The notes beneath the pieces were generated by a model, which worked only from the letters and a program-made list of their open reading frames with translations, did not search any database and was not told the origin of the DNA. Positions 30,303 through 61,060 of a DNA stretch of 64,000 bases are shown here, piece after piece. Where the stretch lies: the NCBI GenBank assembly GCA_003249935.1, contig QKHT01000214.1, positions 1 through 64,000 of the forward strand, written 5' to 3'. This stretch comes from Bacteroidota bacterium (GTDB lineage: Bacteria; Bacteroidota; Bacteroidia; Bacteroidales; UBA5342). The number at the start of each line of letters is the position of its first letter. Position 1 is the stretch's first letter. The translations under genes and the position numbers were made by a program.

Positions 30303-32549
30303 ATGACAACGGTTATACAGTATCTGGCAGAGTCGGTATTGTGCGCCACTGCAGTGGCCGTGCTCTATTTTGGGTTGTTCAGATGGTGGTCGTCGCCTGG
30401 TTTTAACCGGTGGTACTTACTGTTCGGTGCGCTGTTTTCGGCAGTTGTACCGTTTTTACGAACCGATATTACTGCCGGTAATGCCGATACAGTGTACGCC
30501 GTACTTTTACTCGACGAGGTTGTTATAAGTAGTGTGGCAAGCTACCACACGGTAGTGGACAATAGCCTTGTTCCGTTTTTAAGTCGTTTTGCAACATTAA
30601 ATTATCTCTATTTTTTCGGTTTTGTTGTGTTGTTTGTCCGTTTTCTCTGGTCGCTCAAGCTGTTTTCGGTATTGGCCCGAACCGGCGTGATTGAACGTTA
30701 CGAAGGATTCCGTTTAAAAATTGTCGACCAATTGTTTAAACCCTTTTCGTTTATCCGCACTATTTATATCGATAAGGCTACGCGTGAGAGTAATATGTTT
30801 CGTGTAATTGTTAAGCACGAAGCAGTACATATCCGGCAGCGTCATTCAATAGATATATTATTGTACGAACCGTTGCTCATTATTCAGTGGTTCAATCCAA
30901 TGGTTTGGTTGCTTCGCCATGCCATTCGCGAGAACCACGAATTTTTGGCCGACAGGGGCGTTATTTCATCTGGTATTTCGCGTCCTGAATATTGTAAGGC
31001 GTTGCTTTACACTGCAATGGGTGCCACTTTCGAGTTAGGAAATAATTTTAGTTATTCGCTCACAAACAAACGATTTAAAAAAATGAAAAAGCATAGTTCA
31101 GTTAAAAATACAATGGTATCGGTACTTATTGCGGGTGCTCTCTTTTGGAGCTCGTTTACCATTGTTACCGGAAATGTAATTGCAAACGAAGTGCAAAGTA
31201 TTACGGTACAGAATATTACGCCACCACCCCCACCTCCGCCTTTAGCTCCGCCCCCACCGCCACCGGTTCAACCCGAAGATAAAATTTACGAAGCGTGCGA
31301 AACCGCACCCGAATATCCCGGAGGAGAAAAGGCTTTATTGGATTATTTGGGAAAATCTGTCAGGTATCCGGAGGTCGCGCGGGATCAGGGGATTACTGGC
31401 AGCGTATTGGTAACTTTTGTGGTCGATAAAACTGGTAGGGTAACCAATGCCCATGTAAAAAACAAAGTCGACACATTGCTTGCCGCCGAAGCACTGCGCG
31501 TAGTAAACAGCATGCCAAGCTGGATTCCGGGTAAGAATCATGGCCGGCTGGTGAATGTAAGATTTACGTTGCCAATAAATTTTGCACTGGAAAAATCGGC
31601 CAATGCGCATAAATCTATCGCACAGTTTCCGGGAGGGATGGCGGAATTGATGAAATTTATGAGACAAAATGTAAAATACCCAAAAAATGCATTGGAAAAA
31701 GGTATTGGCGGCAAAGTGTTTGTAAAATTTGTGGTTGCGGAAACAGGTAAGGTACAGGATGTTGCCATTGAGCGTGGGGTCGATTCGCTACTCGATGCCG
31801 AAGCACTAAGGGTGGTTTCGATAATGCCGAAGTGGGTTGCTGCACAAGAGAACGGGCAAAGCATATCGAGCACAATGACATTGCCGGTTATGTTTGCCTT
31901 AGATAATGGGAAAAGTGGTGGCGAAGCGGTGTTTATGGTGGTTGAAGAGATGCCCAAATTTGTTGGTGGGAATGAGGAACTTAGCAGGTTTATGAGGTCT
32001 AATCTTAAATATCCCGAACAGGCAAAAAAAGAGAAATTGGAAGGGATGGTTTATATTAGTTTTGTTGTAACCAGTACCGGAAGTATTTCGGATGTAAGCG
32101 TTGCTAGGGGTGTTTGTACGTTGTTGGATGCCGAAGCTGTGCGTGTGGTAAAAAGCATGCCCAATTGGATTCCGGGCAAACAACGCGGTAAAGCAGTGAG
32201 TGTTAGCTATATGCTGCCGATAAAGTTTGAATTGACGGACAAAGGTGAGGGTGTATCTGCTGAAAAACCCTTGGTTTCGGAGGATGTGATGAAAATTATT
32301 CACCTCAAATACACCAACAGCACCACAGGCAAAGAAATTTCGGGACAATTAGTTGATTCACAGCAAAAACCGATTCAAGGCGTAAGTATTATCTCACTAA
32401 GTACCGATGCCAAAAAAGGATACAATAAGGGCACGATGTCGGATAAATCGGGCAACTTTAAGATGTTATTGGATAAAAATTCCGATGCTGTCGTTTTTTC
32501 TTTTATAGGAAAGAAGACTATTAAGCTTGTAGTCCCTGCAACAGAATAA
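30303..32549 (+). CDS. M56 peptidase with three TonB C-terminal domains
   Basis: At 748 residues this BlaR1-like membrane protein is longer than usual. It has transmembrane helices near 12-28, 36-54 and 98-122, then the zinc-peptidase motif HEAVH at 172-176 with a further ligand candidate in ENHEFLAD (210-217). Another helix lies at 270-290, then a proline-rich linker (307-323) and three tandem TonB C-terminal domains (about 337-428, 441-533 and 551-644), each with RYP/KYP, a DAEALRVV-like helix and a closing TLPI/MLPI strand. A carboxypeptidase-regulatory-like domain ends the protein (679-745). One TonB domain is common on Bacteroidota M56 proteins; three is unusual. It may link cell-envelope energy transfer or receptor state to release of the BlaI-type repressor. 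Confidence 0.88.
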   Translation: MTTVIQYLAESVLCATAVAVLYFGLFRWWSSPGFNRWYLLFGALFSAVVPFLRTDITAGNADTVYAVLLLDEVVISSVASYHTVVDNSLVPFLSRFATLNYLYFFGFVVLFVRFLWSLKLFSVLARTGVIERYEGFRLKIVDQLFKPFSFIRTIYIDKATRESNMFRVIVKHEAVHIRQRHSIDILLYEPLLIIQWFNPMVWLLRHAIRENHEFLADRGVISSGISRPEYCKALLYTAMGATFELGNNFSYSLTNKRFKKMKKHSSVKNTMVSVLIAGALFWSSFTIVTGNVIANEVQSITVQNITPPPPPPPLAPPPPPPVQPEDKIYEACETAPEYPGGEKALLDYLGKSVRYPEVARDQGITGSVLVTFVVDKTGRVTNAHVKNKVDTLLAAEALRVVNSMPSWIPGKNHGRLVNVRFTLPINFALEKSANAHKSIAQFPGGMAELMKFMRQNVKYPKNALEKGIGGKVFVKFVVAETGKVQDVAIERGVDSLLDAEALRVVSIMPKWVAAQENGQSISSTMTLPVMFALDNGKSGGEAVFMVVEEMPKFVGGNEELSRFMRSNLKYPEQAKKEKLEGMVYISFVVTSTGSISDVSVARGVCTLLDAEAVRVVKSMPNWIPGKQRGKAVSVSYMLPIKFELTDKGEGVSAEKPLVSEDVMKIIHLKYTNSTTGKEISGQLVDSQQKPIQGVSIISLSTDAKKGYNKGTMSDKSGNFKMLLDKNSDAVVFSFIGKKTIKLVVPATE

Positions 32550-32636
32550 AAACATTCCAATCACAAGGCAGTAATTGATGCATTTTCATTATTTTCGCAA
32601 CGAATTATTTATTCTGTTTTACGAAAATTGAAAAAA

Positions 32637-33443
32637 ATGAAAGTGTTATTCTTATCTGCCTTGTTGGTTGTATTGGTTCTATTCCCGAGCGTTTCTTTTG
32701 CTCAGGATTCTGACGAGATTGTTGTTACTGGTTTGGGCCATCATTCATCCGATAAAAAACTTATTGGGGATTTGTTTCAGGTGGTAGAACAACAACCTGA
32801 GTTTGTTGGTGGAACTAAAGCCATGTATAAATATTTGTCGGAAAATTTGCAATATCCCGAAGATGCCTATTACAAAAATATTCAGGGAAAGGTTTATGTG
32901 AATTTTGTGGTGACCAAAACCGGCGAAATAGCCAATGCCGGGATTTTGCTTGGTGTCGATTCGTTACTCGATGCCGAAGCACTCAGGGTTGTAAAAGGCA
33001 TGCCGGCATGGGAACCCGGCAAACAAAGAGGCGAGCCACAGAATGTAAAAATGACGCTACCTATTAAATTTGCTATAAAACAACCTGAAACTACAGCTGA
33101 GATATCAGATACCGTGGTACAAGATGTAGAGGTTTTTCAGCAAGTGGAGGAACCTCCCATGTTTCCCGGCGGAGATAAAATGTTGATGAATTTTTTGTCC
33201 TTAAATATCAGATACCCGCATGAAGCGCAGGAATCAAGGATACAGGGAAGGGTCTATGTGAAATTTGTAGTGCGATACGACGGCACAATTACAAATGTCT
33301 CAATAGCAAAAAGTGTTCACCCAATACTTGATGCTGAAGCTTTGCGTGTGGTAAGTGCTATGCCGCTTTGGATACCCGGCCGCCAACGGGGTAAGTCGGT
33401 TAATGTAAGCTATATGCTGCCGATCAATTTTGTAATGATGTAG
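32637..33443 (+). CDS. Periplasmic protein with two TonB C-terminal domains
   Basis: From ATG 32637 (268 residues) it has a signal peptide (VLFLSALLVVLVLFPSVSFAQ) and no further membrane helix, so it should be free in the periplasm. It consists of two TonB C-terminal domains (about 45-145 and 165-268) resembling those of the M56 protein: both share DAEALRVV, GKQRG or GRQRG and a closing MLPI or TLPI strand. Without a membrane anchor or proline-rich spacer it cannot act as an ordinary TonB; it may bind receptor TonB boxes or the M56 protein. It follows the M56 gene by 87 bases, same strand, and probably arose by duplication of its TonB part. Confidence 0.85.
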   Translation: MKVLFLSALLVVLVLFPSVSFAQDSDEIVVTGLGHHSSDKKLIGDLFQVVEQQPEFVGGTKAMYKYLSENLQYPEDAYYKNIQGKVYVNFVVTKTGEIANAGILLGVDSLLDAEALRVVKGMPAWEPGKQRGEPQNVKMTLPIKFAIKQPETTAEISDTVVQDVEVFQQVEEPPMFPGGDKMLMNFLSLNIRYPHEAQESRIQGRVYVKFVVRYDGTITNVSIAKSVHPILDAEALRVVSAMPLWIPGRQRGKSVNVSYMLPINFVMM

Positions 33444-33557: not shown

Positions 33558-33944
33558 CTACTCGACCATGTAAATATTGGCGTTTATTTTTAGCCAATTG
33601 TTTTTCCGTTTTTTGGAAACTACTCTGCAAAAGAACAATTTGCCTGCATCCATCAATCGGGAGCACACCACATTCATATCGGCGGGTACAAATCCAATAC
33701 GAATGTTGTCGCAATAAATTGCAATCGCAAATTCGTCGAATTTATTTTTCGGATCTCTTTTCATGGTTAATACTTTCTCCGAAATGATTTTGTCCTCAAC
33801 AGATTCAAGATCATTGCAATAACTTGTGCCTGCAATCACAATTTCCAATAAAAAGATCTCCTGCGTAAATGGCCTAATACCGTTTTCAACATTACTCAGC
33901 AGGGCCAGTAAACCCGGAGTTACCGGTAGTATCGAACTATTCAT
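33558..33944 (-). CDS. HIRAN domain protein
   Basis: This 128-residue protein is essentially one HIRAN domain (about 31-127): FLLEIVIAGTSYCND, the hallmark LTMKRDPKNKFDEFAIAIY (60-77) and IRIGFVPADMN (81-91). HIRAN domains bind single-stranded DNA 3' ends and damaged or stalled forks in HLTF/Rad5-type proteins, and stand alone in bacteria. Its start overlaps the end of the J-domain gene by eight bases, so the two are coupled. Base use is more AT-rich than in the flanking genes. A DNA-repair or defence role is possible but unproven. Confidence 0.85.
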   Translation of the reverse strand: MNSSILPVTPGLLALLSNVENGIRPFTQEIFLLEIVIAGTSYCNDLESVEDKIISEKVLTMKRDPKNKFDEFAIAIYCDNIRIGFVPADMNVVCSRLMDAGKLFFCRVVSKKRKNNWLKINANIYMVE

Positions 33945-34740
33945 CTGCTATAATATTTATGATATACAAATATTTAACGATCTCTTCCTCAGCTATTTTT
34001 ATCTGAATTCGCAATTCATCCTGTTCGCGTTCGATATAGTTTTCGTCGAGAATCAATGCTTTAATACTAAAAGGAAAGCTTTGTTTTAATTGGTCGATTT
34101 TCGATTTTAAACGTTCAACCTGTTGTTCAAGATGTTTAATCCGCTCAACTTTTTCATCACTTGAAATGAGTTTCAGTTTTTCGTTATTAGAATGATCCAG
34201 ATAGAGAAGGATGTTTTGCAGATCGCTTAATCGTTGCAAATCGTAAGCAGCTTTAACTTTGATGAACAAATCTTTTTCTTCCTCCGTTTGATTTGGATTC
34301 AAATCCGGATGCAATCTTTTGCATAGTACTCGAAAAGTTTCTTTTAACTTTTGAATTTCATCGTCCGAAATCAAGTGAGAAAGGACCTGTTTTGCTTCAT
34401 CCAGAGCGGCCGATTGAGCCTGAATCTGCGCATAATAATGTTGTAAACGTGCATTTATCTCTCGTTCAATGGCTTCGAAATCGGGCTGTTCATTCCGATT
34501 GATCGCGGCCTGTATCATGTTCATTTTCATTTTAAGTCGAGCCGATTCGGTTTGCTTTTCAAGCAATTCGAGTTGAAGACAACCTAATTTTTCAAGATAT
34601 ATCGATGTGAGAATAACAGACTCATTTTCAACCATGTCTTTGTGACGGGTAAAGAGGTCTAAAAATTCTGAATGCAAAAGTTCCAATCGCTTGGTAAGTT
34701 CTTCGTTTTGCTCAGTAAAAGTGGGTACACTGTTGCTCAT
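33937..34740 (-). CDS. Coiled-coil protein with J domain
   Basis: The 267-residue protein starts with a long helical segment (about 10-120), then a J-domain-like core at 126-178 containing HPD (144-146) in FRVLCKRLHPDLNPN. A second strong coiled coil runs from about 190 to 255. The HPD motif is what stimulates Hsp70 (DnaK), so the protein could recruit the chaperone to a partner, presumably the coupled HIRAN protein. No zinc-finger or G/F domain of DnaJ is present, so it is not a general DnaJ. It reads leftward and is the first intact gene of the pair. Confidence 0.82.
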   Translation of the reverse strand: MSNSVPTFTEQNEELTKRLELLHSEFLDLFTRHKDMVENESVILTSIYLEKLGCLQLELLEKQTESARLKMKMNMIQAAINRNEQPDFEAIEREINARLQHYYAQIQAQSAALDEAKQVLSHLISDDEIQKLKETFRVLCKRLHPDLNPNQTEEEKDLFIKVKAAYDLQRLSDLQNILLYLDHSNNEKLKLISSDEKVERIKHLEQQVERLKSKIDQLKQSFPFSIKALILDENYIEREQDELRIQIKIAEEEIVKYLYIINIIADE

Positions 34741-60441: not shown

Positions 60442-60775
60442 AAAGTTTAATAAGTTGACCTTGTTCTTATTGCGAATATCTACCTGTCGCAAAAATACAT
60501 TCAAAATTACGCAAAAATGTATAATAATCCAAGCTTGGTGATATTTGTTCAGGGGCTATCGCATTTAAAACTATTTACCACGAAATACATTATTCTTTGT
60601 GCAATGGTGATCGTAGAATTTTTTACATGGTATCGACATGTGCCTTTTCGTTGTTTCGTGTGTTTTGAGGTTGAAACGCCATGTTTCGTGATTCAAACCG
60701 TTAAATGCAGTTGTCCTGATTCCGTGAATCGGTCCACTATGATCCCGAAAGAATTTTTGCTTTGTCAACCAGATG
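60442..60775. other. Gap with no gene recognised
   Basis: The 334 bases upstream of the leftward lipoprotein gene hold its presumed promoter, but no clear TAnnTTTG box with -33. The open frames on either strand show no family features. It runs into the 41-bp repeat array. Confidence 0.4.
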
Positions 60776-61060
60776 TTCAAAAGCTGCAACATTTTTGCAA
60801 ACGTGAATTGGTTCCCGGTTTGCCCTTGCAAAACTTTTGCAAACGTGAATTGGTTCCGGTTTGCCCTTGCAAAACTTTTGCAAACGTGAATTGGTTTCGG
60901 TTTGCCCTTGCAACATTTTTGCAAACGTGAAATGGTTCCGGTTTGCCCTTGCAAAACTTTTGCAAACGTGAAATGGTTCCGGTTTGCCCTTGCAACATTT
61001 TTGCAAACGTGAATTGGTTCCGGTTTGCCCTTGCAAAACTTTTGCAAACGGAAATTGGTC
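60776..61060. repeat. Tandem array of a 41-bp unit, six full copies plus partials
   Basis: Units begin TTGCAAACGTGAA at 60795, 60837, 60878, 60919, 60960, 61001 and 61042 (spacing 42, 41, 41, 41, 41, 41); the last is partial and degenerate. Each contains GCAAAC, 14 bases, GTTTGC (an inverted pair) and the self-complementary TTGCAA twice. Copies differ only at a few places: GTGAATTGG or GTGAAATGG, and GCAAAACTT or GCAACATTT in the tail. The variants are mixed along the array, as after unequal exchange. All three minus-strand frames stay open because 41 is not a multiple of three; the peptides are not credible proteins. There are no unique spacers, so it is not CRISPR. Confidence 0.88.

What the first reader, a model, noticed from the sequence alone, without database searches (positions are those of the whole stretch)
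33558..34740. Coupled HIRAN protein and J-domain coiled-coil protein
A stand-alone HIRAN domain (stalled-fork or ssDNA 3'-end binding in other proteins) is encoded with an eight-base overlap after a J-domain protein with two long coiled coils. The pair is AT-rich relative to neighbours and preceded by a gene remnant. It suggests an Hsp70-recruiting DNA-related complex, possibly repair or phage defence; I know of no described system of this exact composition.
Basis: partly seen in the sequence, partly recalled or inferred. Interest (0 to 1): 0.55.

Follow-up and report, generated by a model that had tools for sequence, protein, structure and literature searches.

The report
Mobile co-chaperone and HIRAN gene pair
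Two overlapping bacterial genes, one for a helper of the Hsp70 chaperone and one for a probable DNA-binding HIRAN protein, move between distant Bacteroidota as one unit, often land beside phage-defence genes, and in close relatives carry an enzyme domain that removes ADP-ribose, so they probably protect the cell in conflicts over DNA; nobody has tested this.

Summary
The pair is real and is more than a local oddity. HIRAN (33558-33944, -) and a J-domain protein with helical flanks (33937-34740, -) overlap by 8 bases. All 7 relatives found in 84,980 species genomes are J-HIRAN pairs, as are 10 of 10 in an order-wide search. The 12 strong J hits in the phylum sample all have the HIRAN gene beside them, one with an internal stop. 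J and HIRAN divergence agree (r=0.94) but neither follows RecA (0.35, 0.39): the pair moves horizontally as a unit. One insertion is seen directly: tpiA-[pair]-prmA in one genome, tpiA-prmA empty in a relative, and a candidate defence gene (Fic) beside prmA in another. Neighbours are enriched in defence genes (11 of 27 loci against 1 of 17 controls), including a cas9-cas1-cas2-J-HIRAN-CRISPR locus. In the branch next to the window's, J is fused to an ADP-ribosylglycohydrolase. Best reading: a mobile conflict or repair module in which HIRAN finds abnormal DNA and J recruits host DnaK there. Composition and mobility are shown; function is inferred. The "gene remnant" is not supported.

The parts
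33937..34740 (-). J-domain protein, 267 aa, first gene of the pair
   Evidence: Pfam DnaJ 2.2e-6; 61-77% identity over all 267 residues to 7 relatives
34237..34359 (-). J domain core (residues 128-168: helix II, HPD loop, helix III)
   Evidence: Pfam match, profile 13-52 of 63; PDB profile matches to DNAJB6/DNAJB8 and E. coli DnaJ J domains
34303..34311 (-). HPD motif (residues 144-146), the Hsp70-stimulating tripeptide
   Evidence: kept in 29 of 29 paired loci; read directly from the sequence
34498..34713 (-). N-terminal helical, probably coiled-coil region (residues 10-81)
   Evidence: AlphaFold helices, low to medium confidence; heptad test
33943..34161 (-). C-terminal helical hairpin, probably coiled coil (residues 194-266)
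   Evidence: AlphaFold helices, several blocks pLDDT 83-88; heptad test
33937..33944 (-). 8-base overlap: HIRAN start inside the end of the J gene
   Evidence: 18 of 29 paired loci have exactly 8 bases, the rest range from 44 bases of overlap (start codon uncertain) to a 19-base gap
33558..33944 (-). HIRAN protein, 128 aa, second gene of the pair
   Evidence: Pfam HIRAN 7.7e-12; 68-80% identity to 7 relatives
33567..33854 (-). HIRAN domain (residues 31-126)
   Evidence: Pfam; profile matches PDB 3k2y 1.4e-11 and HLTF HIRAN 0.003
33855..33944 (-). conserved N-terminal extension of the HIRAN protein (residues 1-30), typical of the paired form
   Evidence: alignments A2 and A4

Best explanation
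A horizontally mobile, translationally coupled two-gene module serving the cell in conflicts over DNA (phage, plasmid or DNA damage). The small HIRAN protein recognises single-stranded DNA or DNA ends. The J protein, probably an oligomer through its coiled coils, works with it and uses its HPD to bring the host's own DnaK (Hsp70) to the marked site, where DnaK strips or remodels the proteins bound there. In one sister branch the J protein also carries an ADP-ribosylglycohydrolase, which suggests that ADP-ribosylated DNA or proteins are among the targets. SHOWN: composition, conserved pairing, invariant HPD, purifying selection, transfer as a unit, insertion at an occupied/empty site, defence-gene neighbourhoods, the glycohydrolase fusion. 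INFERRED: DNA binding, complex formation, DnaK recruitment, protective effect.
For: Pairing: 7 of 7, 10 of 10, 12 of 12 J hits of 150 bits or more in the phylum sample, 4 of 4 further class-level hits. Paired J proteins separate from the solo J proteins in the tree, with no solo tip inside, though the basal node is weakly supported, 0.02. HPD 29 of 29. J-HIRAN identities correlate 0.94 over 153 genome pairs, against 0.35 and 0.39 with RecA. Empty site between tpiA and prmA in G1147; PDC-S04 Fic gene (PADLOC 6.3e-164) beside prmA in G1131. Patchy within one genus: 9 of 61 genomes, one copy broken. Defence neighbours: at least 11 of 27 loci against 1 of 17 controls, Fisher p 0.015: type IIG RM, Hma, type III restriction, PDC-M19, Cas1. 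cas9-DUF6155-cas1-cas2-J-HIRAN-CRISPR array in G230. Glycohydrolase-J fusions followed by HIRAN.
Against: No nuclease, toxin or other effector in the usual pair. The window copy itself sits among housekeeping genes, and so do many others. The defence enrichment weakens to p 0.054 when the genus g261 loci are counted once, and the controls come from other lineages. The pair was not found on plasmids or phages, and viral contigs held only unlike HIRAN or J stretches. The glycohydrolase fusion is known from 3 genomes in one family. DNA binding is untested.
Confidence: 0.42

Rival explanations
1. A DNA-repair or replication-stress adaptor for the cell's own chromosome, spread by horizontal transfer but not a defence system: HIRAN marks stalled forks or broken ends, and J-DnaK clears stuck protein complexes.
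For: HIRAN in eukaryotic fork remodellers (passages of PMC7804152); housekeeping contexts such as the window, L010, L014, L027-L029; 16 of 27 loci have no individually confirmed defence neighbour.
Against: Presence is patchy even within a genus (9 of 61); the inheritance does not follow RecA; it exchanges sites with a candidate defence gene.
Confidence: 0.3
2. A service module for neighbouring nucleases: after Cas9 or a restriction enzyme cuts, HIRAN binds the end and J-DnaK evicts the enzyme or protects the host from self-damage.
For: Direct adjacency to type IIG RM genes (L008, L009, L025, L080, L081), cas genes (L024), Hma and type III restriction (L074, L076, L077).
Against: No constant partner system; many copies have no nuclease nearby.
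Confidence: 0.12
3. A counter-measure against ADP-ribosylation by phage enzymes, like the ARG-centred systems proposed in PMC9503650, where the J protein handles modified proteins and the glycohydrolase is supplied in trans when it is not fused.
For: Fusion in the branch next to the window's own (tree support 0.935); that paper links ARG systems with chaperones and a HIRAN protein with ARPP (section read).
Against: No glycohydrolase motif in any other held locus; no Nudix/WYL regulator recognised.
Confidence: 0.08
4. A toxin-antitoxin pair with HIRAN as antitoxin, as proposed for HipN.
For: HIRAN matches PDC-M03B (9.4e-10); HipN carries a HIRAN domain (passages of PMC8262856).
Against: No kinase or toxin domain in the J protein; the HipS-like half of HipN is missing. 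HIRAN is found alone (G678), and an intact J beside a HIRAN gene with an internal stop (G577), which a simple toxin would not allow.
Confidence: 0.05

Closest known systems
HipIN (HipI kinase with HipS-HIRAN antitoxin HipN), probably the PADLOC candidate PDC-M03
   Same: Two-gene unit with a HIRAN protein; HIRAN proposed to sense phage DNA ends (PMC8262856, passages)
   Different: Here the partner is a J protein, not a kinase, and the HIRAN protein lacks the HipS-like half; the identification of PDC-M03 with HipIN is my inference from the profile layout
ARG-centred systems and the ARPP-HIRAN pair (PMC9503650, section 3.8)
   Same: Link HIRAN, ADP-ribosylglycohydrolase and chaperone-like proteins in conserved neighbourhoods
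   Different: That paper has no hit for 'dnaj'; most J-HIRAN pairs have no glycohydrolase
bNACHT25 with host DnaJ (PMC12169576, abstract and Discussion read)
   Same: A J-domain protein and its DnaK contact are needed for phage defence
   Different: Uses the host's general DnaJ and a separate NACHT effector; no HIRAN
HLTF/Rad5 HIRAN domains
   Same: Same domain family; N..D..A and G..P core conserved
   Different: Fused to SNF2 helicases; Rad5 HIRAN binds ssDNA without needing a 3'-OH (PMC7804152, passages)
Stand-alone J-domain co-chaperones (class C/III, label recalled)
   Same: HPD, helices II and III, no zinc finger or DnaJ C-terminal domain found by Pfam
   Different: J domain lies in the middle between helical regions and is almost always paired with HIRAN

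Membership tests
HIRAN domain family (PF08797) | profile match above the curated cut-off | tested here: met
   45.3 bits against 24.7
HIRAN domain family (PF08797) | DNA-end or ssDNA binding | not testable with these tools
   Core N67/D70/G84/P87 invariant in 16 of 16; the HLTF tyrosines (positions recalled) appear replaced by V/A; Kile 2015 not held
J-domain proteins | HPD between helices II and III | tested here: met
   29 of 29 paired loci; Pfam 28.1 bits against 27.8
J-domain proteins | stimulates a DnaK ATPase | not testable with these tools
   none
PDC-M03 / HipIN | HIRAN preceded by a HipS-like N-terminal half | tested here: not met
   best match covers only profile positions 128-202 of 250; protein is 128 aa
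PDC-M03 / HipIN | adjacent HipA-like kinase | tested here: not met
   partner is a J protein with no PADLOC match below E 0.3
ARG-centred anti-ADP-ribosylation systems | ADP-ribosylglycohydrolase domain | tested here: not met
   absent from the window pair; present by Pfam in 2 of 2 scanned fusions, a third by sequence
ARG-centred anti-ADP-ribosylation systems | Nudix or WYL transcription factor | tested here: inconclusive
   none recognised by eye near the fusions; no systematic scan
anti-phage defence systems | location among defence genes | tested here: met
   at least 11 of 27 loci against 1 of 17 controls, p 0.015; 8 of 23 with one genus collapsed, p 0.054. None recognised at the window locus itself
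anti-phage defence systems | protects against phage | not testable with these tools
   none
CRISPR-Cas accessory genes | constant association with cas genes | tested here: not met
   one locus only, G230

The most novel reading that the evidence does not exclude
A new mode of prokaryotic immunity: a dedicated co-chaperone aims the host's Hsp70 at foreign or damaged DNA ends through a HIRAN reader and dismantles the replication or packaging complexes bound there, with an ADP-ribosylglycohydrolase added in some lineages to undo phage ADP-ribosylation. The weapon would be the host's own chaperone rather than a nuclease or toxin.
Probability: 0.18. Interest if true: 0.85.

Novelty: new variant of a known kind. 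Interest (0 to 1): 0.6.

Why it matters
It gives bacterial stand-alone HIRAN proteins, whose role is open, a constant partner with a known biochemical handle (the HPD-DnaK contact) that one point mutation can switch off. If the module protects against phage, it would be a defence that uses the host Hsp70 machine as effector. If it serves repair, it would tie protein quality control to DNA ends. The glycohydrolase fusion also links both to ADP-ribosylation.

Tried and rejected
Gene remnant upstream: no support. Window-specific curiosity: rejected by conservation. HipIN-type toxin-antitoxin: no kinase, no HipS half. Phage- or plasmid-borne element: J and HIRAN searches in plasmids and phages gave no paired match; one plasmid HIRAN at 30% identity. 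The viral-contig scans gave none, 3 short J-domain matches and 52 loci with unlike HIRANs, with no J beside HIRAN among those 55 loci. Conserved ends of its own: flanks of 8 close pairs share nothing except L011/L013, which share an upstream gene. Empty site for the window itself: the sister genomes G001 and G002 are not syntenic here. Structures: the HIRAN model failed (pLDDT 39); the J model was weak (67) and had no PDB match at E<=0.001. Solo J relatives (112 bits or less in the phylum sample) have no HIRAN in the loci inspected, and those read sit in housekeeping contexts.

Not done: search beyond Bacteroidota with the distant profile (the one genome-contig scan, reaches close relatives only); prediction of the J-HIRAN-DnaK complex.

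Full report
WHAT IS THERE. On the minus strand of the window, 33937-34740 encodes a 267-aa J-domain protein and 33558-33944 a 128-aa HIRAN protein; the second starts inside the last 8 bases of the first. Pfam gives DnaJ 2.2e-6 and HIRAN 7.7e-12, both above the curated cut-offs. The J domain lies in the middle (residues 128-168, HPD at 144-146) between helical regions. The helices are a low- to medium-confidence prediction (pLDDT 67), and a crude heptad test picks the regions starting at residues 1 and 195. The pair is AT-rich (37.1% against 42.4% G+C). The upstream 'gene remnant' is not supported.

CONSERVED PAIRING. A scan of 84,980 species genomes with the J protein gave 7 loci, in Gillisia (Flavobacteria), Mariniphaga, Tangfeifania, other Prolixibacteraceae and unnamed Bacteroidota; all 7 have the HIRAN gene next to it at 68-80% identity, with the same 8-base overlap. 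In an order-wide sample 10 of 393 genomes have J, and 10 of 10 have HIRAN beside it. In the phylum sample J matches 46 of 395 genomes; the 12 best (150 bits or more) all have HIRAN beside it by the coordinates, one with a stop inside HIRAN (G577), whereas the weaker matches (112 bits or less) have none in the loci inspected. A 13th full-length HIRAN (G678) has no J, and G490 has a broken J and no HIRAN. The class sample gives 14 of 395, of which the 4 strong ones beyond the window are paired. In the J tree no solo protein falls among the paired ones, but the basal node has almost no support (0.02). HPD is kept in 29 of 29 tabulated pairs; this table leaves out L015 (a copy of L014), the G577, G490 and G471 loci and the fusions. 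Against Gillisia dN/dS is about 0.12 for J and 0.10 for HIRAN.

IT MOVES AS A UNIT. For 18 genomes (153 pairs) J and HIRAN identities correlate at 0.94, but only 0.35 and 0.39 with RecA. The window J is 62% identical to that of G440, whose RecA is 69% identical, yet only 34% to that of G299, whose RecA is 80%. Within genus g261 only 9 of 61 genomes carry J, one of them broken. In Prolixibacteraceae LaCa_MAG_6 (L010) the pair lies between tpiA and prmA. In G1147 (prmA 80%, tpiA 88% identical) the two genes are 231 bases apart with no pair between them, and several further family members have tpiA next to prmA without the pair. In G1131 (prmA 86%) a Fic gene matching the candidate defence family PDC-S04 at 6.3e-164 stands beside prmA instead; its tpiA was outside the fetched stretch. 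No shared ends were seen. No empty site could be shown for the window itself.

NEIGHBOURHOOD. I took the two nearest ORFs of at least 100 aa on each side: 102 proteins from 27 pair loci (L075 and L079 dropped as near-duplicates, L082 because the ORF caller missed the pair, and one long L083 protein), and as control 64 proteins from 17 solo-J loci (2 of 19 dropped for the same ORF reason). PADLOC at 1e-15 matched 154 models in the first set and 1 model in 1 protein in the second. Of the 102, I scanned individually only 14; 13 of them pass, in 11 loci (L008, L009, L011, L024, L025, L074, L076, L077, L080, L081, L088), so 11 of 27 is a lower bound. Fisher p is 0.015 by locus, 0.010 by protein, and 0.054 when genus g261 counts once. 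The control loci come from other lineages, so this is suggestive rather than strong. In G230 the order is cas9, DUF6155, cas1, cas2, J, HIRAN, then a CRISPR array of 22 repeats starting about 131 bases after HIRAN; cas9 and cas2 were named by eye. The window copy sits among housekeeping genes.

A TELLING FUSION. Searching the family of G230 (3 of 61 genomes) and the genus of G1187 (3 of 39) showed J proteins whose N-terminus is an ADP-ribosylglycohydrolase: G1204 and G1187 (PF03747, 4e-36 and 5e-36) and G1229 (by sequence, not scanned by Pfam), each followed at once by HIRAN; a fourth, G1228, is cut by the contig end. The motifs TDDT and GGDSDT are kept in the two scanned. The two fused J proteins placed in the tree fall next to the window's own subfamily (support 0.935). 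No such motif occurs in the other loci then held.

MECHANISM. HPD means that J can very probably stimulate DnaK. The HIRAN core is conserved, and the profile matches a bacterial HIRAN structure (3k2y) and HLTF. Rad5 shows that HIRAN can bind ssDNA without needing the 3'-OH (PMC7804152, passages), which fits the apparent loss of the HLTF tyrosines here (positions recalled). I therefore propose that HIRAN marks abnormal DNA and J brings DnaK to it. Precedents: DnaJ and its DnaK contact are needed for bNACHT25 defence (PMC12169576, abstract and Discussion); HipN HIRAN proteins were proposed to sense phage DNA ends (PMC8262856, passages); ARG-centred systems with chaperones, and a HIRAN-ARPP pair, were described as candidates to counter viral ADP-ribosylation (PMC9503650, section 3.8). 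Whether the target is phage DNA or the cell's own damaged DNA cannot be decided from sequence.

NOVELTY. Searches for HIRAN with DnaJ, J-domain, phage defence, defence island, operon and ADP-ribosylglycohydrolase, for J-domain or DnaJ domain with anti-phage or defence islands, and for PDC-M03, in the open-licence PMC library found no description of this pair (listings seen, and passages of the likeliest papers). Most subscription papers were not available, and Iyer 2006, which first described HIRAN, is recalled and was seen only in reference lists.

Noticed in passing
   Followed up: partly
L024:8974-18102: Type II CRISPR locus with the J-HIRAN pair between cas2 and a 22-repeat array; DUF6155 gene between cas9 and cas1.
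   Followed up: partly
L168:301-1185: Fic-domain gene (PDC-S04) directly upstream of prmA, where a relative carries the J-HIRAN pair: the tpiA-prmA gap may be an insertion hot spot.
   Followed up: partly
L108 (G577) and L087 (G490): Decaying copies: HIRAN with an internal stop beside an intact J, and a broken J without HIRAN.
   Followed up: no
L116 (G678): Paired-type HIRAN without a J gene, in a genome of the genus where G471 has the pair.
   Followed up: no
L074-L080 (genus g261): The pair lies beside a phosphoglycolate-phosphatase-like gene and pstS in several genomes, with different defence genes (Hma, YhcG, type III restriction) on its other side; looks like a defence hot spot.
   Followed up: partly
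window 30303-33443: BlaR1-like peptidase and the following gene carry repeated TonB C-terminal-like domains (named by eye).
   Followed up: no
window 60571-61047: ORF made of a short repeated peptide; possibly a non-coding tandem array.
   Followed up: no
L002 (G001): A genome of the same family carries a different 111-aa HIRAN gene (39% identity); no J match in that genome.
   Followed up: no
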